A stretch of 15,379 nucleotides of DNA, from assembly GCA_027058925.1 (NCBI GenBank), contig JALTAS010000070.1, positions 1 to 15,379 on the forward strand, read 5' to 3'. The translations under genes were made by a program, and so were the position numbers. The notes below the pieces were generated by a model. The model worked only from the letters and a program-made list of their open reading frames with translations. It did not search any database and was not told the origin of the DNA. Shown here in pieces: positions 1 through 15,379 of this stretch (the first letter of the stretch is position 1; every line of letters begins with the position of its first letter). This DNA is from Persephonella sp. GTDB taxonomy: Bacteria > Aquificota > Aquificia > Aquificales > Hydrogenothermaceae.

Positions 1-3000
1 TTCAGAAAGTTCAAGACTGTAAACGCTTGATATTCCTTCCCTTGCAGAAACACCAAGAAGCCTGTCTGCATAAGATGCCATAGTGTCTCTAAGGGTTACC
101 ACTATAAACTGGGCTTCCTGAGAAAGTTCTTTCATCAGCTCTGCGATCTTTCTTGCGTTTGCATCATCAAGATGGGCATCTACTTCATCAAAATAATAAA
201 ATGGTGCAGGTCTGTACTGCTGAACAGCAAAAAGGAAGGCAAGAGCTGTTAATGTTTTTTCACCACCTGACATTATCTCAAGCCTTTTTACATCTTTTCC
301 CCTCGGTCTTGCTTTCAGTAAAATACCTCCAGAAAGGGGATCCTCCTCATTTTCTATCTCAAGGTAGGCTTTTCCTCCCGGGGAAAGTCTTCTGAATATC
401 TTTCCTAAATTTTTGTTTACAGCTTCATAGACCTCCATAAATGCCCTTATTTTTTTCTCCTCAAGGTTTTGTATCATTTCTTCAATAGACTTTTTTTCAT
501 CTATAAGAACTTTCAGCTTTTCACTCAGATCATCGTACCTTTCCTTTATCTCCTGATAATCCTCAACAGCTTTCTGGTTTACAGCTCCTATCTGCTGTCT
601 TTTTTCCTGATACTCTTTTAGATCTCTCTCAAGCTGTTTAAGGTCTCCTTCTACAGCTTCCCCGTCGTATTCCTCCCTAAGAAGCATAAGCTCTTCTTTT
701 AGATCCTCTATCTTCTGCTCGTGTTTTCCTTTATCCTCAAGAAGGTATGTTATCTGCTTGTTTATGTTCTCCTCTTCGTATCTGAGGACTTTCAGCTCTT
801 CTTTCAGATTTTCAACATCCTCAAGGAGTTTATCCCTTTCTTTTTCCTTTTCTTTCAGATCTTTCCACAGATCTGAAAGCTGTTTGCTCAGATCCTCAAT
901 CTGATCTTTTATCTGCTGTATCTGGGCTGTTTTGGTTCTTTCAGTGTCCTCAATCTTCATCTTTTCATTTTCTATCTGGAATATTCTGACCTTCAGGCTG
1001 TTTTCAAGTCTGTCTTTGAGTTTTTCTATCTGATTTTCAATCTCATTTTTCTTTTCTCTGAGGGAATAAACCTTCTGTGTTGCTTCTTCCCACTCTTTTC
1101 TTAATTTGTGTAGTCCTTCACTTTCCATTTTTTCTAAGATTGATCTTTTTTTCTGCTTGACGGAGCTTATCTGTTTTTCAACCTCATTTAGGTGCTTTTC
1201 TGCATTTTCAAGCTTGTTTTCTATCTCAAACTGTTTTTTCTTCAGGTTTACAATCTCTTCTTCAAGAATGTTTATTCTGCTTATGTTGTGCTGGAGTTTT
1301 TTCTCAATCTCCCTGTTTCTTTCAAGTACATTCTGGCTTTCGTTTTTGAGCTGGAAGAGCTCTTTTTCTGTAAGGGATATTTTTTCTTCTAATTTTTTTA
1401 GCTCTTCTTCCATAGCTTTTTCTTCTGCTTTCAGCCTGTCGTCCTCTTTTTCAAGCCTTATCTTTTCCTGTTCAAGATTTCCTTTTCCCAGAATACCTGA
1501 TCTGCCTTTGTCTGAACCTCCTGTTATTGTCCCGCTTTTTTCAAATATCTCACCTTCAAGTGTGACCATTCTGTATGTTCCTATTCCTAAGCTTCTTGCA
1601 GAATCAAAATCCTGAACTATAACAGTATCCCCAAATACATACCTTACGGCCTTTTCAATTGCAGGATCGTACTCAACAAAGTTAACAGCAAGACCTAAAA
1701 CACCTCTCATCAATGGAGGTCTGTTGACAGAAGGAACTCTTATTTTGTTCAGGGGTATGAATGTTGCCTTTCCTCCTTTATTTTCCTTTAGGACTTTAAT
1801 ACATTCCTGTGCAACCCTGTCGTTCTCAACAACTATATTTTTTAACCTTCCTCCTCCTGCTGCCTCAACAGCTTTGGAATACTCAGGGTCTTTTACACCT
1901 ATAAGATCTGCCACCTGACCGTAAACACCTTTAATATCTCTTATAAGTGCCATTACCCTGTCTTCTCTAACCTGTGAAAGCTGGGCAAGGATCTGGGCAA
2001 GCCTCTGAAAGTTTGATTCTATTTTATCCCGATTTTCTCTGAGCTTTTTTGTTATGCTTTCTTTTCTGATTTTTAGTCTCTGGAGCTCACTCTGGAGGCT
2101 TTTTATCTTTCTTTCCTGTGTTTCAACAAATGATTTTATGTTGTTTTTTGAATTTCTCAGTCCTTCTATCTCTGTTGAGAGCTGGTCTATCTCATCTTTA
2201 TAGCTCTGCACTTTTTCCATTATCCTTGACAGTTCCATCTCAAGGTGGAGCTTTTCCTTGTGGAGGTAGCCCTGTTTTTCTGTGAGTTCCTTTTCTTCCC
2301 TCTCAACCTCCCCAAGATCTAACTTTGCTTTTGATCCTCCTATCTCTATCTCTTTTAGTTTCTTATTTTTTTCTTCAAGCTCCTTTTCAGCTTCTTCAAG
2401 CTCTCTTTTTATCTGGGGAAGTTTCTTTTTTAAATTTTTTATCTCTTCTTCTATAGATATAACCTCTTTGATGTGGGTCTCTTTCTCCTTTGCAAGATCC
2501 TTAAGCAGTTCTTTCAGGCTTTCAAGCTCCTGTTCTATCTCCGATTTTTTTTCATTCAAATGCCTTATCTGTGAGGTTATTGAGCCCTCTTTTTCTTTGA
2601 TAGGCAGTAAAGATTCCTGAAGTTGATTAAGAGTGTTTTCAAGCTGTTTTATCTGGTGTATCTTTTCTTTCTGTTTTTCTATTGATCTTTCTTTTTCAAG
2701 GTAAAGACTGTTTATTTTCTGCTCTATCTCCTCAAGCTCTTTTAACGCTTTTTCCTGCTCTGTTAAAAGAAAGTAAAGTTTTACACCTTTTATTTTGTCC
2801 TGTATCTGGGCTATCTTTTCTTCAAGCTGTGATGCTATAAGAGCATTTTCCCTTTCTTCTTCAAGCCTTTTAAGGTTTGCCCTCACCTCTTTTAGTATTA
2901 ATCTTGCTGATGATATCTTTTCCTCTGATTCCTGAAGGTCTTTTACAGCTTTCTCTTTTCTTTCTTCATACTCTGTAATTCCTGCAATCTCACTGAGAAG

Positions 3001-3480
3001 ATCCCTTCTTTCTGAGGGGGTCATCTTGATAAACTTGAATATGTCACCCTGCGTAACTATGTTGTATCCCTGTTTTGGAATGCCTGCATAAGATAAAATC
3101 TCCTCCACTTCATACTGTTTTGCAGGTCTTCCATTTATTTTGTATGTTGATTTTCCGTTGTGTTCTATCTTTCTGTATATGGAAACATAATCATCATTAA
3201 GGGGAAAAGCTCCTTCATTTTTGAATATAACCTCAACCTCAGCATATTCTGCAGATTTACCCCTTGATGAGAAGATCAGATCAGAAAGTTTCAGGGCTCT
3301 CATTGATTTTGCTGTCGCAAGTCCAAGGGCAAATACAACAGCATCACCTATGTTGCTCTTTCCTGATCCGTTTGGACCAACGATACCAACAAATCCGTCC
3401 CCCACAGGAATGGATAACCTTCTGTTTCCGTAAGATTTAAAACCATAAACATTGATCCTTTCAATGTAAGCTTTTGACAT
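1..3480 (-). CDS. smc: Chromosome partition protein SMC, archaeal-like, C-terminal end cut by window edge
   Basis: Structural maintenance of chromosomes ATPase. As a dimer it forms the bacterial condensin ring that compacts and segregates the chromosome. The frame is open for 1160 codons from the ATG at 3480 to base 1. The family is usually about 1150-1200 residues, so only a short tail is missing. Visible parts in order: N-terminal head with Walker A GPNGSGKS (residues 35-42, Lys41) and Q-loop Gln144; a long charged coiled coil to about 500; a glycine-rich hinge at about 505-655; the returning coiled coil; then the C-terminal head with ABC signature MSGGEK (1070-1075), Walker B FDE (Asp1098, Glu1099) and D-loop HLDDAN. 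All ATPase residues are present, so the protein should be active. The wording of both heads (KFIKM after the Q-loop, MSGGEK, PAPFYYFDEVDAHLDDAN) recalls Pyrococcus SMC more than Bacillus SMC. It lies 80 bases after the acyl-CoA synthetase on the same strand, and may be cotranscribed with it. Confidence 0.97.
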   Translation of the reverse strand, partial: MSKAYIERINVYGFKSYGNRRLSIPVGDGFVGIVGPNGSGKSNIGDAVVFALGLATAKSMRALKLSDLIFSSRGKSAEYAEVEVIFKNEGAFPLNDDYVSIYRKIEHNGKSTYKINGRPAKQYEVEEILSYAGIPKQGYNIVTQGDIFKFIKMTPSERRDLLSEIAGITEYEERKEKAVKDLQESEEKISSARLILKEVRANLKRLEEERENALIASQLEEKIAQIQDKIKGVKLYFLLTEQEKALKELEEIEQKINSLYLEKERSIEKQKEKIHQIKQLENTLNQLQESLLPIKEKEGSITSQIRHLNEKKSEIEQELESLKELLKDLAKEKETHIKEVISIEEEIKNLKKKLPQIKRELEEAEKELEEKNKKLKEIEIGGSKAKLDLGEVEREEKELTEKQGYLHKEKLHLEMELSRIMEKVQSYKDEIDQLSTEIEGLRNSKNNIKSFVETQERKIKSLQSELQRLKIRKESITKKLRENRDKIESNFQRLAQILAQLSQVREDRVMALIRDIKGVYGQVADLIGVKDPEYSKAVEAAGGGRLKNIVVENDRVAQECIKVLKENKGGKATFIPLNKIRVPSVNRPPLMRGVLGLAVNFVEYDPAIEKAVRYVFGDTVIVQDFDSARSLGIGTYRMVTLEGEIFEKSGTITGGSDKGRSGILGKGNLEQEKIRLEKEDDRLKAEEKAMEEELKKLEEKISLTEKELFQLKNESQNVLERNREIEKKLQHNISRINILEEEIVNLKKKQFEIENKLENAEKHLNEVEKQISSVKQKKRSILEKMESEGLHKLRKEWEEATQKVYSLREKKNEIENQIEKLKDRLENSLKVRIFQIENEKMKIEDTERTKTAQIQQIKDQIEDLSKQLSDLWKDLKEKEKERDKLLEDVENLKEELKVLRYEEENINKQITYLLEDKGKHEQKIEDLKEELMLLREEYDGEAVEGDLKQLERDLKEYQEKRQQIGAVNQKAVEDYQEIKERYDDLSEKLKVLIDEKKSIEEMIQNLEEKKIRAFMEVYEAVNKNLGKIFRRLSPGGKAYLEIENEEDPLSGGILLKARPRGKDVKRLEIMSGGEKTLTALAFLFAVQQYRPAPFYYFDEVDAHLDDANARKIAELMKELSQEAQFIVVTLRDTMASYADRLLGVSAREGISSVYSLELSE

Positions 3481-8358: not shown

Positions 8359-9045
8359 TTGGTTCTTTTAGATCTAAAAAGCAATGGCAAGATAGAGAAA
8401 GCTTTTTTTATAAAAAGGCCAAATAGGTTTGTTGGGCTTTGCAGGATAAACGGTTCAATAAAAAAATGTCATATTGCAGACTCTGGAAGGCTAAAAGAGA
8501 TACTGACCGAGGGTAGAGAACTTCTTGTTGTAAAAAACCCTGAAGGTATGAAAACAGATTATAAGGTTCTGGCGGCAAAAATGGAAGAAGGCTGGATACT
8601 TCTTAATACTTCGCTTCATTCTGCAATAGGGAAAAAAGCTATACAAAAAGGGATCTTAGGCTTTAAACCAGAAAATATCAAAGCTGAAGTGAGATATGGA
8701 AAAAGCAGAATAGATTTTCTTGTTGAGGGGAACATATTTGTTGAGCTAAAGGGAAGCAATCTTTTAGTGGGAAAAAAATGTGTCTTCCCAGACGCACCAA
8801 CATTAAGGGGAAAAAAGCATCTTGAAGAGCTTATCAAAGCAGTAAAAGAAGGATACAGAGCGTACATACTGATTATGGTGTTAAGAGACTGCCGTTGTTT
8901 TGAAACCAACAAGGATCTTGATCCTGAATTTTCAGATACCTTTAAAAAAGCCTTGAAATCTGGTGTTAAATTTGTAGGGTTTCAAGTAAAAATTGATAAA
9001 GATCTAAATGTGGTTCTAAAAGGAAAAATTAATCTTTGCAGGTAA
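8359..9045 (+). CDS. sfsA: SfsA-family protein (PD-(D/E)XK nuclease-like fold)
   Basis: Member of the SfsA (sugar fermentation stimulation) family. In E. coli it was linked to maltose metabolism and DNA binding, but its biochemical role is unsettled. Later fold work places its core in the PD-(D/E)XK nuclease superfamily. The 228 residues match the family. Seen: an N-terminal OB-like part with FIKRPNRFVG (17-26) and HIADSGRLKE (38-47), then the core SRIDFLVE (Asp119), FVELKGSNL (Glu129, Lys131, completing D-ExK) and FPDAPTLRGKKHLEEL (143-158), all family hallmarks. Translation starts at TTG 8359, preceded by AGGGAG about 7 bases upstream; no in-frame ATG upstream fits. The stop lies 3 bases before the TRIC gene, so it probably leads the operon. 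Nothing ties its function to the ion-transport genes behind it. Confidence 0.92.
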   Translation: MVLLDLKSNGKIEKAFFIKRPNRFVGLCRINGSIKKCHIADSGRLKEILTEGRELLVVKNPEGMKTDYKVLAAKMEEGWILLNTSLHSAIGKKAIQKGILGFKPENIKAEVRYGKSRIDFLVEGNIFVELKGSNLLVGKKCVFPDAPTLRGKKHLEELIKAVKEGYRAYILIMVLRDCRCFETNKDLDPEFSDTFKKALKSGVKFVGFQVKIDKDLNVVLKGKINLCR

Positions 9046-9048
9046 AAG

Positions 9049-9663
9049 ATGATAACAGAGATGTTTCTCTTTATGAATATAACAGGATTAATAGCTTTTG
9101 CTGTTGTAGGTTCATTCAAAGCATTGAGAGAGAATCTTGATCTTTTTGGCATAACCGTTTTAGGTGTTTTAACCGCACTTGGAGGTGGAATAACAAGAGA
9201 TCTTCTGGTTAATCAGGTTCCGTATGCATTAAAATCCTTTACAGATTTTTCGTTTGCACTTGGAGGGGTATGGCTTGCCATCGTTCTCCACCGTATATTT
9301 AAAAAAGATATTAGTAACAAGTTTTTTATACTTATTCCAGATGCTATCGGGCTATCGGCATTTACTACAACTGGAGCCTTAATAGCCCACGGTGCAGGTG
9401 TGTCATTTTTTGGGGTTATTATTCTTGCAACTATGACCGGAATAGGAGGGGGTATGATAAGCGATATATTTTTAGGTAAAGTTCCGACTGTTCTGAAGGA
9501 TGATTTCTATGCATCGTGTGCTATTATCGGTTCAACCGCATTTTACATCGCTGTTCATTCTGGAATTGATCCAAGCGTTGGTGCGGTTATATGTGCAACT
9601 GTAGTTCTTATGATAAGGATTCTTGCCATTTTATATAACTGGAGATTACCTAAATTCTCATGA
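9049..9663 (+). CDS. TRIC-family trimeric cation channel (UPF0126 membrane protein)
   Basis: Integral membrane protein of the TRIC/UPF0126 family. Animal and archaeal/bacterial members form trimers, each subunit with its own pore passing K+ and other monovalent cations. The 204 residues hold about seven hydrophobic segments in two related halves. The first half has ALGGGITRDLL followed by VP (43-58, Gly45-47, Arg50, Asp51). The second has GIGGGMISDIFLGKVP (131-146, Gly133-135, Asp139). The paired triple-glycine motifs kink the pore helices in known structures. The ATG follows the sfsA stop by 3 bases with AGGT upstream, and its TGA overlaps the next ATG (ATGA at 9660-9663). Being coupled to a SERCA-like pump is striking, since animal TRIC carries counter-current for Ca2+ release from the store that SERCA fills. 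Some UPF0126 proteins have instead been associated with glycine transport, so channel function is a family inference. Confidence 0.88.
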   Translation: MITEMFLFMNITGLIAFAVVGSFKALRENLDLFGITVLGVLTALGGGITRDLLVNQVPYALKSFTDFSFALGGVWLAIVLHRIFKKDISNKFFILIPDAIGLSAFTTTGALIAHGAGVSFFGVIILATMTGIGGGMISDIFLGKVPTVLKDDFYASCAIIGSTAFYIAVHSGIDPSVGAVICATVVLMIRILAILYNWRLPKFS

Positions 9664-12170
9664 AGAACAGTTTCCATAGCCTATCTCTGGAAGAAACCTT
9701 TAAGACCCTTAAAACAGATAAAAAGGGTCTTTCAAGAAAAGAGGCTATATTAAGGCTTAAAAAATATGGATTAAACAGCATACAGGAGAAAAAAGAAAGT
9801 CTCCTGACCATATTCTTGAGGCAGTTCAACAATCCTCTCGTTTTTATTCTTCTTATTGCAATCGGGATTACAACCTATATGGGAGACAGAATAGATGCTG
9901 TGATCATAGGAATTATTGTTCTTGTGAACAGCATGTTAGGATTCTTTCAGGAAGTTAAGGCAAGGTCTTCTGTAGAATCCTTAAAAAGGATAACGGAAAC
10001 CAAAGCATGTGTAATTCGAGATGGAAAAGAAAAAATAGTTCCTGTTTCAGAAGTGGTTCCGGGAGACATAGTTGTTGTGGTTGAGGGAGATGTAGTTCCA
10101 GCAGACACGAGACTTATAGAGGCTTCAGGTTTACTTGTTGATGAGTCTATTCTGACCGGAGAATCCATTCCTGTGGAAAAAAAAGCTGATGTTATTCTTC
10201 CAGAAAACACACCCCTTTACAAAAGAAATAACATTTTATTTAAAGGAACAATAGTTGTCAGAGGTAAAGGTAGAGGAATTGTTTTCGCTACCGGCAGAAA
10301 CACAGAGATAGGAAAGATAACTGAAAAAGTAAAGGAAAAATCTCCGGAGAGTCCACTAAATAAAGCTCTAAAAGCTTTTTCTCTAAAATGGATGGTAATA
10401 CTGTTCATAATACTTGGATTTATCCTTTTTTTAGGAATACTACAGGAGAGAGACCTTTACAAATTATTTCTGCTCATTATATCTGAGCTTGTATCAGCAG
10501 TTCCAGAAGGTCTTCCCCTTGTTGTTACATTCGTTCTTGTGATGGGGGCTCTTTCTCTGGCAAAGAAAAAAACCCTTGTAAAGTACCTTCCGTCTGTTGA
10601 AACCTTAGGAAGTGCAACATACATAGTTTCTGACAAAACCGGAACAATAACAGAAGGGAAACTAAGGGTTGAAGATTATGCATCATCAGATATTGAGGTT
10701 CTATATCTTGCAGCTGCCTTATGCAATGATGCAGAAGAAAAAAAAGGAGATCCCGTTGAAGTTGCCCTTCTGAATTGGCTTTCAAAATCAGGTTTTGACT
10801 GGAAAAAAGCAAGGAAAGCATACAGGAGGATTTGGGAACACCCATTTGACACTCACCTGAGGTTAATGGCAACTGTAAACAAAATAGATAATCAGGACTA
10901 TCTATTTGTTAAAGGGGCTTTTGAAACCTTATCAAAAATGGCTGTTAATGATATATCTCATTTTGAGAAACAGCATGATGAGATGGCACAAAAAGGATTA
11001 AGAGTTCTTACATTTGGATTTTCCAAAATAAGCAAAATACCAGATGAGATAGAAAAAGTAAAAATAGAGATCATAGGTCTGGTAGGTTTTCTTGATCCTC
11101 CAAAAAAAGGTGTGAAAGATGCCGTTGAAACAGCAAGAAAAGCCGGGATTAGAGTTATAATGGTTACGGGAGACAATTTAAAAACAGCCGTTTCTGTAGC
11201 AAAAATGGTTTCCATATACAAAAATGGAGATGTTGCTGTATCTGGCGCAAAACTGTCGGAGTACTCGGATGAAGAGCTATACAATCTGTTAAAAATGATA
11301 TCTGTGGTTGCCCGGGCAACACCAGAGGATAAATACAGAATAGTTAAAGTTCTACAGAAACATCGTGAGATCGTTGCTGTAACCGGAGATGGAGTAAATG
11401 ATGTTCCGGCTCTAAAAGTGGCAGATTTAGGAATCGCAATGGGCGGTGGAACAGAAGCAGCCAAAGATGTTGCAAAAATGATAATAACTGATAACAATCT
11501 GTCAGTTATTGTTGATGCAGTAAAACAGGGAAGAACGATAGCAAATAACATAAGGAAGGTTATATATTATCTTCTTTCCTGTAGTTTTGGAGAGATCACA
11601 CTACTGACAACAGCTTTCTTATTTAAACTTCCTCTTCCCCTTTACCCTATCCAGATTTTATGGATAAATCTGGTTACAGAAGGGGTTCAGGACAAGACAT
11701 TTGCTTTTTGTAAAGAAGAAAAAAATCTTATGGAAGAAAAACCAAAAAAACCGGAAAAAACATTTTTTGATAAAAGACAGCTTTTTGACATATCTTTTGC
11801 AGCCAGTGTTATGGGATTATTTAACTTTATTTTATTTATATATCTTCTCGGAATTGTCTCATATGAAAAAGCCGTTACAATCACATTCTGTTCTCTCATA
11901 GCAAATCAGTGGTTTAACGGAATTCAGGCAATTATAGAAGAGCCTTTTTTCAAAAATATACGCAAAAGCTTCACAGTAAATCCATATATGTATTTAGGAT
12001 CTGGTATCGGATTTATTTTACAATTAGGAGCGGTATACATTTTTCCACAATGGATACATACTGTACCCCTTCATTTAAAAGATTGGATCTTTGTTCTTGG
12101 AACATCTATAGCTGTTTTCCTGATGATAGAAATAAAAAAATGGATTCTACACAGGATAAATAAAAAATGA
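9660..12170 (+). CDS. P-type (P2-like, SERCA/PMCA-related) cation-transporting ATPase
   Basis: Ten-helix P-type ATPase of 836 residues, pumping a cation across the inner membrane at the cost of ATP. It has an N-terminal cation-ATPase domain (about 5-55), actuator TGES (166-169), the M4 motif VPEGLP (281-286), phosphorylation site DKTGT (Asp325), nucleotide-domain KGAFE (418-422), MVTGDN (501-506) and the hinge TGDGVND (575-581), so catalysis should be intact. There is no heavy-metal CPx motif or metal-binding domain, which rules out the P1B group. By hand alignment to SERCA, Glu283 matches E309, Glu645 matches E771, Asn670 and Thr673 match N796 and T799, and D800 is Glu674 (LVTEGVQDK, 671-679). 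N768 is Ser642, and the M8 segment ANQWFN (748-753) shows no acid for E908. Calcium is plausible; Na+, Mn2+ or H+ are not excluded. It overlaps both neighbours by ATGA, so is translationally coupled to TRIC and the antiporter. Confidence 0.92.
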   Translation: MKNSFHSLSLEETFKTLKTDKKGLSRKEAILRLKKYGLNSIQEKKESLLTIFLRQFNNPLVFILLIAIGITTYMGDRIDAVIIGIIVLVNSMLGFFQEVKARSSVESLKRITETKACVIRDGKEKIVPVSEVVPGDIVVVVEGDVVPADTRLIEASGLLVDESILTGESIPVEKKADVILPENTPLYKRNNILFKGTIVVRGKGRGIVFATGRNTEIGKITEKVKEKSPESPLNKALKAFSLKWMVILFIILGFILFLGILQERDLYKLFLLIISELVSAVPEGLPLVVTFVLVMGALSLAKKKTLVKYLPSVETLGSATYIVSDKTGTITEGKLRVEDYASSDIEVLYLAAALCNDAEEKKGDPVEVALLNWLSKSGFDWKKARKAYRRIWEHPFDTHLRLMATVNKIDNQDYLFVKGAFETLSKMAVNDISHFEKQHDEMAQKGLRVLTFGFSKISKIPDEIEKVKIEIIGLVGFLDPPKKGVKDAVETARKAGIRVIMVTGDNLKTAVSVAKMVSIYKNGDVAVSGAKLSEYSDEELYNLLKMISVVARATPEDKYRIVKVLQKHREIVAVTGDGVNDVPALKVADLGIAMGGGTEAAKDVAKMIITDNNLSVIVDAVKQGRTIANNIRKVIYYLLSCSFGEITLLTTAFLFKLPLPLYPIQILWINLVTEGVQDKTFAFCKEEKNLMEEKPKKPEKTFFDKRQLFDISFAASVMGLFNFILFIYLLGIVSYEKAVTITFCSLIANQWFNGIQAIIEEPFFKNIRKSFTVNPYMYLGSGIGFILQLGAVYIFPQWIHTVPLHLKDWIFVLGTSIAVFLMIEIKKWILHRINKK

Positions 12171-13156
12171 TATTGTGGACAATTTTTCTCTTTTTAACAC
12201 TTGTTATATTCTTTTCCGGGAAAAATCTTGTTAAATATGGGGATATTCTGGCAGAAAAATTGCGGTTAGGCAAAACAATTGTAGGAATATTGTTTGTTGC
12301 CTCAATTACATCCCTTCCTGAGCTCATAACAGGCATAAGTGCCGTTACATTTGCAGATTCCCCAGACATAGCTGCAGGTGATATTTTCGGAAGCTGTATG
12401 TTTAACCTTCTAATTCTTGCGTTTCTTGACGGTTTTTTTAGAGATACACCGCTCTCCACGAAGGTTCACCATGGTTTGACACTATCTGGAGCTTTTGGAA
12501 TTATACTGATAACAATTTCTATGTTGACCATATTTTTAGGGAACAAAATACCTGCCTTTGGATGGATATCAGGAAGTTCCTTCATCATAATTTTTGTTTA
12601 CATAATATCTGTATGGGTAATAACAAGATATGAGAAAAAATTGATTACCAAAACAGTAGAGGAGGTTGCATATCTATATGAAGATATCACATTAGGAGAA
12701 ACAGTCTTTAAATATGGAATTAATGCTATAATCATAATTATTGCATCTACCTTTTTACCTAAAGTTTCAAAAGAGATAGCCCACCTTTATGGCTTTACAG
12801 AAACATCATTCGGTACATTTTTTGTAGCTCTCTCAACATCCTTACCAGAAATAGCCGTTTCTGTAGCGGCTGCAAAAATGAATATGGTCACAATATCTGT
12901 GGCAAATCTTCTTGGAAGCAACATTTTCAACATATTCATACTGGCTGTTGATGACTTTTTCTACACAAAAGGATCAGTATTTGAATACATGGACCATAAC
13001 AACCTGTGGAGTGGTGGTACAGCCGTTCTAATGACAGCAACTGTAATAATTGGTCTGATATACAGGGCTGAGAAAAAAAGGTTAAGACTTGCCTACGAAT
13101 CAATAGCCCTTATTATGATTTATTTAGCAGGTATTATAATTATCTTTAAGCTTTAA
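12167..13156 (+). CDS. CaCA-family cation antiporter (Na+/Ca2+ exchanger fold)
   Basis: Ten-helix membrane antiporter of the Ca2+/cation antiporter family, 329 residues, close to the usual 300-360. Both inverted alpha repeats are visible. Alpha-1 has ITSLPELITG (47-56, Glu52) then GDIFGSCMFN (71-80). Alpha-2 has STSLPEIAVS (223-232, Glu228) then ANLLGSNIFN (246-255). The repeats should line the ion path, with Glu52 and Glu228 as the core acids. Two features differ from the characterised Methanocaldococcus NCX: alpha-1 has Cys77 where GSN/GSD is usual, and alpha-2 has Asn252 where that protein has Asp. An aspartate pair follows alpha-2 (Asp262-Asp263). A central loop with Lys/Glu (about 155-176) joins the halves. 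The ATG overlaps the ATPase stop (ATGA, 12167-12170). Ca2+ export driven by Na+ or H+ is the family expectation, but the ion is uncertain. Confidence 0.88.
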   Translation: MILWTIFLFLTLVIFFSGKNLVKYGDILAEKLRLGKTIVGILFVASITSLPELITGISAVTFADSPDIAAGDIFGSCMFNLLILAFLDGFFRDTPLSTKVHHGLTLSGAFGIILITISMLTIFLGNKIPAFGWISGSSFIIIFVYIISVWVITRYEKKLITKTVEEVAYLYEDITLGETVFKYGINAIIIIIASTFLPKVSKEIAHLYGFTETSFGTFFVALSTSLPEIAVSVAAAKMNMVTISVANLLGSNIFNIFILAVDDFFYTKGSVFEYMDHNNLWSGGTAVLMTATVIIGLIYRAEKKRLRLAYESIALIMIYLAGIIIIFKL

Positions 13157-13176
13157 AAATAAATGAGGAGAAAAGA

Positions 13177-14349
13177 ATGTTACTCAAAGAAAAAAATCTG
13201 CTTTTAGGTGTGACAGGATCAATAGCTGCCTACAAATCCTGTGAGATAGTGAGGCATCTGCAGAAAAAAGGAGCAAAAGTAAGGGTGTGTCTTACCCCAT
13301 CAGCAAAGGAGTTTGTTGGGGAAATTACATTCAGAGCACTGACAGGTGAAGATGTTTTATCCACATGGAAGGATGGAAAGACAGGGCTTGAACATATATT
13401 CTGGGCAAGATGGGCTGATACCTTTGTTATAGCACCTGCAACAGCAAACACCATAGCGAAAATATCTGCAGGTATTGCTGACAATTTTGTAAACTCTGTA
13501 GCTCTTGCCTATGACAGACCTATCATATTTGCTCCTGCAATGAACACAAACATGTATAGATCCCCACAGACACAGGAAAACATAAAAAAGCTAAGAAGCT
13601 GGGGGCACATATTTGTTGAGCCTTCGGAAGGAGAGCTTGCCTGTGGCGAAGAAGGTGAAGGAAAGCTTGCAGATGTTGAGGACATTACCACGCAAATTCT
13701 GTATGCTGTTTTACCAAAATATCTAAAAGGTAAAAAAGTGCTGGTAACAGCAGGAGGAACAAGGGAGTTTTTTGATCCTATCAGATATATATCAAATGCA
13801 TCTTCAGGACAGATGGGATATGCCCTTGCAAGGATAGCTTATGCGCTTGGAGGCGACGTTACACTTATATCTGCTCCCACATGTCTGAAGAAACCTTATG
13901 GAATAAAAACTGTGGATGTTGTATCCGCAGAAGATATGCATGAGGCTGTTATGGAAAGTTTTCCTGAGGCAGATGTGATAATTATGAACGCAGCAGTTGC
14001 TGATTTTAAACCTGAAACATACAGCAGTGAAAAACTAAAAAAATCTTCAGAAAAACCTGTTATAAATCTTGTCCCAAATCCGGACATATTGAAAGAGTTG
14101 GGGGAAAAAAAGAGAAAAGATCAGATATTGATAGGGTTCGCAGCAGAAAGCCAGAACATCATCCCAAATGCAGAAGAAAAGTTAAAAAAGAAAAATCTGG
14201 ACTACATTATTGCAAACAGGGTTGATGTTTTCAGCAAAGAAACTCACGAAGGCTGGATAATATCAAGAGAAGGGAAGGTTATACAGATTCCCAAAATGGA
14301 TAAGGAATCTTCAGCCTATTTTATCCTTGAAAAAATCTTTAAGAGGTAA
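13177..14349 (+). CDS. coaBC: Bifunctional CoaBC (phosphopantothenoylcysteine synthetase/decarboxylase)
   Basis: Cytoplasmic enzyme of coenzyme A synthesis. The C-terminal CoaB half joins 4'-phosphopantothenate to cysteine with CTP, and the N-terminal CoaC flavoprotein half decarboxylates the product to 4'-phosphopantetheine. The 390 residues are typical (E. coli Dfp is about 406). CoaC part: GVTGSIAAYK (11-20), likely catalytic His73, PATANTIAK (87-95), APAMNTNMY (119-127, Asn123) and the flap LACGEEGEGKL (154-164) with Cys156. CoaB part: VTAGGTREFFDPIRYISN (190-207), SSGQMG (209-214), NAAVADFKP (271-279), NPDIL (301-305) and IGFAAES (319-325). No key residue is missing. An ideal GAGGAG lies 7 bases before the ATG, in a 20-base gap after the antiporter gene; the next gene follows after 5 bases. 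It seems a housekeeping passenger in an ion-transport operon. Confidence 0.96.
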   Translation: MLLKEKNLLLGVTGSIAAYKSCEIVRHLQKKGAKVRVCLTPSAKEFVGEITFRALTGEDVLSTWKDGKTGLEHIFWARWADTFVIAPATANTIAKISAGIADNFVNSVALAYDRPIIFAPAMNTNMYRSPQTQENIKKLRSWGHIFVEPSEGELACGEEGEGKLADVEDITTQILYAVLPKYLKGKKVLVTAGGTREFFDPIRYISNASSGQMGYALARIAYALGGDVTLISAPTCLKKPYGIKTVDVVSAEDMHEAVMESFPEADVIIMNAAVADFKPETYSSEKLKKSSEKPVINLVPNPDILKELGEKKRKDQILIGFAAESQNIIPNAEEKLKKKNLDYIIANRVDVFSKETHEGWIISREGKVIQIPKMDKESSAYFILEKIFKR

Positions 14350-14354
14350 GAAAA

Positions 14355-14843
14355 ATGGAGTTTAAGGAAAGTGATCTGCCAGGAATCGGAAAAAAATACT
14401 CAATAGTAACATCAGCAGGTGATAAAATCACCGTTGTAATGCATGTTACCGGAAAAAGGGAAATATTCATTTTTGAACCTGAAGATTTTGATGAGCCATC
14501 CTGCGATGTTGTTCTCACAGAAGAAGAAGCAAATCAGCTTGGATCTATCTTAATGGGAGCATATTTCAGGCCTGAACAGGAAAAAGAAAAAGAGGTTCTG
14601 ATTGAAAATCTTGCGATTGAATGGGTAAAGATACCAACAACCTCTCCTTTGGCAGGAAAAAGCATTAAAGAGGCAGAGATTAGAAGAAGGGCAGGTGTAA
14701 CAGTGATAGCAATAATAAAAGAGAATGAAACCATCGTAAACCCTAAACCTGAAGAGATTATATCTGCAGGGGATACTGTTGTTGTTGTTGGAACAAGGGA
14801 ACAGGTTGATAACTTTTTGAGAGAGTACAAAATAAATGCATGA
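14355..14843 (+). CDS. KhtT-like RCK_C regulatory subunit of a K+/H+ antiporter
   Basis: Small cytosolic protein (162 residues) with the layout of KhtT/YhaT, the gate subunit of the KhtTU K+/H+ antiporter of Bacillus. An N-terminal domain (about 1-70) begins FKESDLPGIGKKY, as in this family. A linker rich in Glu and Lys follows (about 72-80), then an RCK_C/TrkA_C domain (about 80-160) with PLAGKSIKEAEIRRRAGV (98-115), NPKPEEIISAGD (129-140) and TVVVVGTREQV (141-151). The AGKSI...R...G and P...GD...V.G pattern defines RCK_C. There is no Rossmann RCK_N domain, so NAD(H) is not the likely ligand. Bacillus KhtT responds to pH and binds c-di-AMP; whether this one does cannot be seen. The ribosome-binding site AGAGGT lies inside the end of coaBC. 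The gene overlaps the next, a CPA2 antiporter, by 8 bases, which strongly supports the pairing. Confidence 0.9.
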   Translation: MEFKESDLPGIGKKYSIVTSAGDKITVVMHVTGKREIFIFEPEDFDEPSCDVVLTEEEANQLGSILMGAYFRPEQEKEKEVLIENLAIEWVKIPTTSPLAGKSIKEAEIRRRAGVTVIAIIKENETIVNPKPEEIISAGDTVVVVGTREQVDNFLREYKINA

Positions 14844-15379
14844 AACAATCCCTTTCCTTATGCTGTTTGGCTTTTTAAATCTGGCACTTTTCTTTGCCGG
14901 TTTGCTCGGGAGACTTTTTAGATTTCCTGCCATCTTATTTTACATAGTAGCTGGAATAATTTTTGGCGGACTTATACATACAGAAGAAGCTATAGAGATA
15001 TTCAGTGAAATAGGAATCGTTTTACTGTTCTTTTATCTGGGTCTTGAATTTAACCTTAGCAGGGCTTTTTCCACTGCAAAAAAGATATGGTCAGTAGGAC
15101 TGCTTGATCTTTTTTTTAATTTTTTTCTAATTTTTGGACTGATGATTCTTTTAGGGTTTGATCTATTTACATCAATACTTGCTGGCGGTGTTGCATATGC
15201 ATCATCTTCAGCGATAACAACAAAAATTATTGTTGACAACCACAGAATAGCAAATCCGGAAACAGAGCTTATTCTCGGACTTATGGTTTTTGAAGACATC
15301 GCTGCGCCTATTCTTCTTGCTGTAATCGCAGGTATGTCCTCAGGAAATGATTTTACACTAATTACATTCGGTATTATAT
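14836..15379 (+). CDS. CPA2-family cation:proton antiporter (KhtU/KefB-like), partial
   Basis: Start of a membrane antiporter cut by the right edge; 181 codons are visible. The protein begins MHETIPFLMLFGFLNLALF and runs as successive hydrophobic helices. Family signs are FPAILFYIVAGIIFG (helix 2 region), GIVLLFFYLGLEFN (the KefB/KefC-like GLEF motif), a small-residue run YASSSAITTKI, and LMVFEDIAAPILLAV, where the Glu-Asp pair sits at the position of the ion-binding acidic motif of CPA2 antiporters. The ATG at 14836 overlaps the end of the KhtT-like gene by 8 bases. A second ATG at 14840, forming a tempting ATGA with that gene's stop, gives only 12 codons and is not used. Known KhtU proteins exchange K+ (also Na+ or NH4+) for H+ under control of KhtT. 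The missing C-terminus would tell whether an RCK_N domain is fused. Confidence 0.88.
   Translation, partial: MHETIPFLMLFGFLNLALFFAGLLGRLFRFPAILFYIVAGIIFGGLIHTEEAIEIFSEIGIVLLFFYLGLEFNLSRAFSTAKKIWSVGLLDLFFNFFLIFGLMILLGFDLFTSILAGGVAYASSSAITTKIIVDNHRIANPETELILGLMVFEDIAAPILLAVIAGMSSGNDFTLITFGII

What the first reader, a model, noticed from the sequence alone, without database searches (positions are those of the whole stretch)
9049..13156. TRIC channel, SERCA-like pump and Na+/Ca2+-exchanger-fold antiporter fused into one translationally coupled cassette
Three genes in a row are joined by two ATGA overlaps (9660-9663 and 12167-12170). Their families match the three partners that handle Ca2+ at the animal sarcoplasmic reticulum and plasma membrane: TRIC (monovalent counter-ion channel), SERCA/PMCA-type ATPase, and CaCA exchanger. 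In animals TRIC balances charge during Ca2+ release. Here the channel could pass K+ to balance charge moved by an electrogenic pump and exchanger in the inner membrane. The coupling of these three would make a compact bacterial cation-homeostasis system. I do not know of it as a described unit. The overlaps and families are seen; the joint function is inferred.
Basis: partly seen in the sequence, partly recalled or inferred. Interest (0 to 1): 0.78.

Follow-up and report, generated by a model that had tools for sequence, protein, structure and literature searches.

The report
Cation-pump gene pair beside TRIC
Three neighbouring membrane-transport genes in a hot-vent bacterium look like a miniature animal calcium kit, but related genomes suggest that only the pump and the exchanger belong together and that the channel-like gene is a neighbour beside which they landed.

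Summary
Three separate ORFs (9049-9663, 9660-12170, 12167-13156; +) overlap by ATGA at 9660-9663 and 12167-12170. They encode a TRIC/UPF0126 protein, a P2A-like cation ATPase and an NCX_Mj-like CaCA exchanger.

The three-part unit is not supported. Of 136 Aquificota genomes searched, 7 show TRIC-ATPase-CaCA, all of the window's genus (Persephonella by inference). The ATPase-CaCA pair stands apart from TRIC in 6 more genomes of two families, always tightly spaced. TRIC occurs in 53 genomes; in this family its usual upstream neighbour is SfsA. Four congeners have SfsA-TRIC-CoaBC with nothing, or a multihaem cytochrome, where the pair sits here; three of them carry a pair elsewhere. In one congener TRIC abuts CaCA and no ATPase orthologue was found. 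Possible -4 starts are common in one congener (37 of 249 pairs).

Best reading: a pump-exchanger pair, of a kind already reported for bacteria, inserted beside TRIC in one lineage. TRIC's own role is unsettled: prokaryotic TRICs conduct K+, yet the family is reported as needed for glycine use in 11 bacteria, and 3 of 8 haloarchaeal relatives examined lie beside glycine-metabolism genes. Low interest.

The parts
8359..9045 (+). SfsA (DNA/RNA nuclease family); usual upstream neighbour of TRIC in this bacterial family
   Evidence: TIGR00230 above cut-off; SfsA-TRIC junction in 25 genomes
9049..9663 (+). TRIC / UPF0126 protein (Pfam 'Gly_transporter'), 204 aa, two repeats with GGG kinks; M2 GGxxRD, M5 GGxxSD
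9660..12170 (+). P-type ATPase, P2A-like (LMCA1/SPCA1 nearest solved), 836 aa; M4 PEGLP, M5 SFGE, M6 NLVTEG
12167..13156 (+). CaCA-superfamily exchanger, 329 aa, two alpha repeats (TSLPE..GSCMFN and TSLPE..GSNIFN)
9660..9663 (+). ATGA overlap TRIC/ATPase; an ATG at -4 also in 4 of the 5 other triples with intact genes, the fifth (G081) having TTG at -4 or ATG at +11
12167..12170 (+). ATGA overlap ATPase/CaCA; over 13 adjacent pairs the spacing varies from -16 to +6 nt
13177..14349 (+). CoaBC; directly follows TRIC in two pair-less congeners (G091, G092)
14355..14843 (+). TrkA_C-domain protein, read as a KhtT-like regulatory subunit (name recalled)
14836..15379 (+). Na_H_Exchanger family protein (KhtU-like K+/H+ antiporter, name recalled), cut by the window end

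Best explanation
The ATPase and the CaCA exchanger are a co-inherited two-gene cation-export pair: an ATP-driven pump (most likely Ca2+, possibly Mn2+) plus a secondary exchanger (most likely Na+/Ca2+) that work in parallel to keep the free ion low in the cytoplasm. In one Persephonella lineage the pair was inserted between TRIC and CoaBC of an older gene string (SfsA-TRIC-CoaBC-KhtT-KhtU-EpmA-K+ channel). TRIC is therefore a neighbour by history and keeps its own job, either a K+ leak or glycine/small-metabolite transport. Shown: gene families, pair conservation, TRIC's independent contexts, congeners without the pair at this site. Inferred: the ion, the direction of transport, insertion rather than earlier presence and excision, co-transcription.
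For: Triple in 7 of 136 genomes, one genus. ATPase-CaCA adjacent in 13 of 16 genomes with both, spacing -16 to +6 nt; pair without adjacent TRIC in G080, G083, G091, G092, G123, G126. The ATPase tree (quick, SH-aLRT only) and the CaCA tree agree that the G083/G091/G092 pair groups with another genus rather than with the pair of the triple genomes. TRIC in 53 of 136 genomes with SfsA, dnaX/response regulator/BioF-like, TrmFO-like or PrmC/MurA-like neighbours. Four congeners lack the pair at this site; G088 has TRIC-CaCA, no ATPase orthologue found. A paper states that bacterial SERCA/PMCA-related ATPases commonly neighbour Na+-Ca2+ antiporters (PMC7016017, passages).
Against: An ATG at -4 joins TRIC and ATPase in 5 of 6 triples with intact genes, and a TTG at -4 is possible in the sixth, so coupling may be selected. 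All 18 genomes with the orthologous CaCA also have TRIC somewhere, though kinship may explain this. Polarity cannot be fixed: the deep branches of the genus tree are weak. In G074, G075 and G076 pump and exchanger orthologues are apart and in G088 the exchanger has no pump orthologue, so the pair is not obligate. Nothing was measured on transport.
Confidence: 0.75

Rival explanations
1. One reading: TRIC passes K+ to balance charge moved by the pump and exchanger; the three form one functional Ca2+/cation unit.
For: Close coupling in the triples; prokaryotic TRICs resemble mammalian ones in conductance (PMC5477506, passages) and SsTRIC passes K+ and Na+, its authors suggesting a role as membrane-potential regulator (PMC5401562, passages).
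Against: Adjacency limited to one genus; TRIC without the pair at this site in 4 congeners and TRIC-CaCA without an ATPase orthologue in G088; ATPase orthologue without TRIC in 23 of 52 genomes; 0 of 13 plasmid TRIC neighbourhoods show an annotated P-type ATPase or CaCA within 4 kb (gene tables incomplete).
Confidence: 0.1
2. A genus-level cation-homeostasis operon: TRIC, KhtT-KhtU, the RCK K+ channel and, in one lineage, the pump-exchanger pair are co-regulated to keep K+, Ca2+ and membrane potential in balance in mineral-rich vent fluid.
For: KhtT-KhtU, an EpmA-like gene and an Ion_trans+RCK channel follow closely in the same direction in G081, G087, G088, G090 and G092, and the channel lies farther off in G084.
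Against: SfsA, CoaBC, an EpmA-like gene and a multihaem cytochrome are interleaved; outside the genus TRIC was not seen with KhtT-KhtU in the loci read, one (G077) having a channel homologue a few genes away on the other strand; no expression data.
Confidence: 0.12
3. TRIC here is a glycine or small amino-acid transporter with no link to cations; Pfam's name is right. (This is compatible with the best explanation, so the odds overlap.)
For: UPF0126 reported as important for glycine use in 11 bacteria (PMC12173739, one passage of a review reporting another study); 3 of 8 haloarchaeal plasmid TRICs examined lie beside gcvT/gcvH/gcvPA or lipA/lpdA/glyA, and these share the variant M5 motif without Arg.
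Against: Prokaryotic TRICs conduct K+ or Na+ in bilayers (PMC5477506, PMC5401562, passages); the other 5 haloarchaeal contexts show no glycine genes; no glycine-cleavage genes were recognised beside the Aquificota copies, the BioF-like enzyme in family f5 being nearest to 8-amino-7-oxononanoate synthases.
Confidence: 0.45

Closest known systems
Bacterial P-type ATPase / Na+-Ca2+ antiporter gene neighbourhoods (PMC7016017)
   Same: A SERCA/PMCA-related ATPase gene near a Na+/Ca2+ antiporter gene, read there as ionic homeostasis
   Different: Here a TRIC gene precedes the pair in one lineage; that paper's supplementary figure was not seen
Prokaryotic TRIC proteins of known structure (5wuc, 5wtr, 5h35, 5wuf, 5h36)
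   Same: Length, GGG kinks in M2 and M5, DAxGL, plug-like P...DFYA stretch
   Different: M5 motif is GGxxSD where 5wuc and 5wtr have GGxxRD, while M2 carries RD where they do not
LMCA1 (Listeria Ca2+-ATPase) and SPCA1/PMR1
   Same: Best solved-structure matches; PE in M4, DKTGT, same domain order
   Different: M5 has Glu where LMCA1 has Ala, M6 Glu where LMCA1 has Asp, M8 Gln where LMCA1 has Arg; below every Ca2+-ATPase equivalog cut-off listed
NCX_Mj / YrbG-type CaCA exchangers
   Same: Both alpha repeats with TSLPE and GSxxxN/D
   Different: Second repeat has Asn where NCX_Mj has Asp, in 16 of 16 relatives aligned; below the TIGR00367 cut-off
Animal SR/ER trio TRIC-SERCA-NCX (recalled)
   Same: The same three broad families
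   Different: TRIC linkage not conserved here; PMC7016017 finds no evidence that such parts act together in any bacterial clade (passages)

Membership tests
TRIC/UPF0126 (PF03458) | Pfam match above curated cut-off, two repeats | tested here: met
   136.3 vs 23.5 bits, 2 stretches
TRIC/UPF0126 (PF03458) | GGG signature in M2 and M5 (PMC5477506) | tested here: met
   GGG at 45-47 and 133-135, kept in at least 48 of 49 Aquificota TRICs
TRIC/UPF0126 (PF03458) | GGXXRD plug-binding motif on M5 (PMC5401562) | tested here: not met
   GGMISD; Ser at 138 in 45 of 49 Aquificota TRICs. A gating-motif variant; the family match stands
TRIC/UPF0126 (PF03458) | K+ conductance or glycine transport | not testable with these tools
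   needs bilayer or uptake assay
P2A Ca2+-ATPase | P-type core: TGES, DKTGT, GDGxND | tested here: met
   TGES in 46 of 47 (one row has a gap), DKTGT 47 of 47, GDGxND 47 of 47 orthologues
P2A Ca2+-ATPase | Score above a Ca2+-ATPase equivalog cut-off | tested here: not met
   TIGR01522 558.8 vs 798.3; TIGR01116 461 vs 703.4; TIGR01517 390.2 vs 507.05
P2A Ca2+-ATPase | Ca2+-site residues (SERCA E309, N768, E771, N796, D800, E908; numbering recalled) | tested here: inconclusive
   E283, S642, E645, N670, E674, Q750 by the LMCA1 alignment and recalled numbering
P2A Ca2+-ATPase | Ca2+ transport | not testable with these tools
   needs vesicles or growth tests
CaCA superfamily (PF01699) | Na_Ca_ex match in two stretches with an acidic SLPE in both alpha repeats | tested here: met
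   109.2 vs 24.9 bits, 2 stretches; TSLPE twice (G082 has TSFPE in repeat two)
TRIC-pump-exchanger functional unit | Gene linkage conserved beyond one genus | tested here: not met
   7 of 136 Aquificota genomes, all one genus; other phyla seen only through 13 plasmid loci
P-ATPase/CaCA gene pair | Adjacency across genera or families | tested here: met
   13 of 16 genomes with both, two families

The most novel reading that the evidence does not exclude
A Persephonella lineage has assembled TRIC, a P2A-like pump, a CaCA exchanger, a K+/H+ antiporter with its regulator and an RCK K+ channel into one transcription unit, and TRIC serves as the counter-ion leak that lets the electrogenic pump and exchanger run without upsetting the membrane potential: a bacterial, plasma-membrane analogue of the TRIC-SERCA arrangement that arose independently.
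Probability: 0.1. Interest if true: 0.55.

Novelty: new member of a known kind. Interest (0 to 1): 0.2.

Why it matters
It shows how a striking family triplet (channel, pump, exchanger) can arise in a gene string of mixed content, so adjacency and ATGA coupling alone should not be read as joint function. The conserved pump-exchanger pair, with an altered ion-site residue, is a usable test object for which ion these bacterial P2A-like pumps carry, and this TRIC subfamily offers a test of the K+ versus glycine question for prokaryotic TRICs.

Tried and rejected
Fusion: rejected, three ORFs with stops. Assembly artefact: rejected, same order in six more genomes. TRIC with another P-type ATPase in family f5 (G133, G135): looked like a second association, but that pump (29-31% to ours) is separated from TRIC by dnaX and a response-regulator gene and follows a GroEL-like gene (name read from the sequence), and two related genomes (G132, G134) have the same pump and dnaX-regulator-BioF order without TRIC. 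K+-transport operon in f5: rejected, the neighbours are DnaX, response regulators and a BioF-like enzyme. Promoter and terminator scans: 22 promoter-like sites (22.1 expected) and 3 terminator-like sites (4.6 expected), no information. RNA families and tRNAs: none in the window. The search for related loci in genome contigs returned one locus, the contig of G090. Co-occurrence of TRIC with the orthologous CaCA (18 of 18) was not tested for significance because the genomes are related. Whole genomes of other phyla could not be surveyed. Paper searches in which a described TRIC-pump-exchanger unit might have shown: (listings only); none was seen among the listed titles and abstracts; the library lacks most subscription papers.

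Full report
What is there. Three complete ORFs run in one direction at 9049-9663, 9660-12170 and 12167-13156, joined by ATGA overlaps at 9660-9663 and 12167-12170. They encode a TRIC/UPF0126 protein, a P-type cation ATPase and a CaCA exchanger. Upstream lie UbiE (minus strand) and SfsA; downstream CoaBC, a TrkA_C protein and a Na+/H+-exchanger-family antiporter cut by the window end.

How surprising are the overlaps? In 20 stretches of 20 kb from one congeneric genome (G083), 37 of 249 co-directional neighbour pairs have a possible start codon at -4, and two such junctions in a row occur 6 times. My ORF rule accepts any alternative start, so this is an upper bound; still, such coupling is ordinary there.

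Who are the proteins? TRIC matches five solved sequences (two labelled TRIC; best E 9e-33). The ATPase is closest to Listeria LMCA1 (464 bits), then SPCA1 (435), then SERCA (351); among NCBI models the PMR1 type is best but below its cut-off, as are the SERCA- and PMCA-type models. Against LMCA1 it has PEGLP in M4, Glu instead of Ala in M5, Glu instead of Asp in M6 and Gln instead of Arg in M8; matching these columns to SERCA E309, N768, E771, N796, D800 and E908 rests on recall. Acidic residues remain in M4, M5 and M6, so a divalent ion is plausible, Ca2+ first, but not shown. The CaCA protein matches NCX_Mj with both TSLPE stretches; the Asp of NCX_Mj's second repeat is Asn here and in all 16 relatives aligned.

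Where else does the order occur? I searched 136 Aquificota genomes for the ATPase, TRIC and CaCA. ATPase orthologues (48% identity or more, fragments included) are in 52; I fetched wide surroundings for 51 of them and saw G036 only with 1.5-kb flanks; some lie at contig ends. TRIC loci not already in hand were fetched; at a few (such as G043, G067, G068, G074, G096) a contig end hides one neighbour, but where an ATPase orthologue exists in those genomes its upstream neighbour was seen and is not TRIC, except G076-type fragments that begin at a contig end. The window's genus follows from its kinship to these. TRIC-ATPase-CaCA occurs in 7 genomes: the window, G081, G082, G084, G087, G090 and G093 (in G093 pump and exchanger are broken and TRIC is cut by the contig end), all of the window's genus. 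Of the other seven genomes of the genus, G083 and G089 have SfsA-TRIC-multihaem cytochrome-CoaBC-KhtT-KhtU, G092 has SfsA-TRIC-CoaBC-KhtT-KhtU, and G091 has SfsA-TRIC-CoaBC up to its contig end, all without the pair between; G088 has SfsA-TRIC-CaCA-CoaBC with no ATPase orthologue found; G085 and G086 (74 and 70% complete) have no TRIC match.

The pair. ATPase and CaCA orthologues are both present in 16 genomes and adjacent in 13, with spacing from -16 to +6 nt. Six of these 13 have no TRIC next to them: G080, G083, G091, G092 and, in another family, G123 and G126. In G074, G075 and G076 both genes exist but apart; G077 has a CaCA piece at a contig end and no ATPase orthologue found. In the CaCA tree the G083/G091/G092 copies group with G074/G075/G076 (100/100); in the ATPase tree (quick, SH-aLRT only) with G074/G075/G071 (100), while the ATPases of the triple genomes group with G080 (97), without a resolved order among them. 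So pump and exchanger largely travel together, while their position beside TRIC looks like a local event. A paper on the evolution of the ER calcium system states that bacterial P-type ATPases related to SERCA and PMCA commonly associate with transporters such as Na+-Ca2+ antiporters in conserved gene neighbourhoods, and that there is no evidence that such parts function together in any bacterial clade (PMC7016017; passages read; its supplementary figure not seen).

TRIC's own company. TRIC occurs in 53 of 136 genomes. SfsA lies directly upstream in 25 of them, all in the window's family and spread over several genera (26 with G103, whose TRIC is split). In family f5 TRIC sits between a response-regulator gene and a BioF-like gene behind dnaX in 9 of 9 TRIC-bearing genomes (clusters; one set identified by Pfam and structures), and two related genomes keep that order without TRIC. 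Elsewhere it follows a TrmFO-like gene or precedes PrmC/MurA-like genes (these names are my reading of sequences). The ATPase orthologue occurs without a TRIC match in 23 of 52 genomes. Outside the phylum I read 13 annotated plasmid neighbourhoods, chosen from 40 listed of 115 records: none shows an annotated P-type ATPase or CaCA gene within 4 kb, with the caveat that the plasmid gene tables are incomplete.

What does TRIC do? Two bodies of evidence conflict. Structural and electrophysiological papers report that prokaryotic TRICs resemble mammalian TRICs in function and that almost nothing is known of their physiological role (PMC5477506, passages), and that SsTRIC passes K+ and Na+, with a report of K+ uptake in E. 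coli relayed from another study (PMC5401562, passages). A review reports that UPF0126 genes were important for glycine use in 11 bacteria, hence a predicted glycine transporter (PMC12173739, one passage), which fits Pfam's name. Of 8 haloarchaeal plasmid TRICs examined, 3 lie beside glycine-cleavage, lipoate or serine/glycine genes and 5 do not. The window protein lacks the Arg of the M5 GGXXRD plug motif (Ser here), as do these 8 haloarchaeal proteins (Ala), while M2 keeps RD; five other bacterial plasmid TRICs have Arg in both.

Mechanism. Most likely the ATPase pumps Ca2+ (or Mn2+) out at the cost of ATP, and the exchanger removes the bulk at lower affinity using Na+ or H+; TRIC works on its own. 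All of this is inference from family. The tree of the genus (concatenated SfsA, TRIC, CoaBC, KhtT, KhtU; 14 rows, two of them with 31% of columns) does not resolve whether the pair was inserted once in the triple lineage or inserted earlier and lost in the G083 group; G088 lies with the triple genomes G081 and G093 (100/100), so its lack of the ATPase is most simply a loss.

Verdict. It is a pump-exchanger pair of a known kind in an unusual place.

Noticed in passing
window 11679-11681 (ATPase residue 674): The M6 acidic residue is Glu in 15 of 47 Aquificota orthologues and Asp in 32; 14 of the 15 Glu genomes and none of the 32 Asp genomes carry the orthologous CaCA (a few Asp genomes have only weak 25-31% CaCA hits). 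The Glu genomes are one clade, so one event, but it hints that ion specificity changed with the partner. M5 residues 642 (Ser/Asn) and 645 (Glu/Gln) vary too.
   Followed up: partly
window 9445-9486 (TRIC M5): The M5 plug-binding Arg of GGXXRD is Ser in 45 of 49 Aquificota TRICs, with RD in M2; haloarchaeal relatives have Ala or Ser.
   Followed up: partly
window 13157-13176 and relatives L036, L144, L159, L166: The stretch between TRIC and CoaBC is variable: nothing, the ATPase-CaCA pair, CaCA alone, an 807-824 aa multihaem cytochrome, or pair plus cytochrome.
   Followed up: partly
window 14355-15379 and L035, L142: KhtT/KhtU-like K+/H+ antiporter genes, an EpmA-like gene and an Ion_trans plus RCK channel follow in the same direction in relatives.
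   Followed up: partly
L088, L089, L208: Haloarchaeal plasmid TRIC genes beside glycine cleavage, lipoate, threonine ammonia-lyase or serine hydroxymethyltransferase genes.
   Followed up: no
L085 (G093): ATPase and CaCA are broken into pieces by frameshifts or stops and TRIC is cut by the contig end; the genome is 55% complete, so sequencing error is likely.
   Followed up: no
window 1-3480, minus strand: A 1160-aa SMC-like ATPase frame runs off the left end of the window (name from reading the sequence).
   Followed up: no
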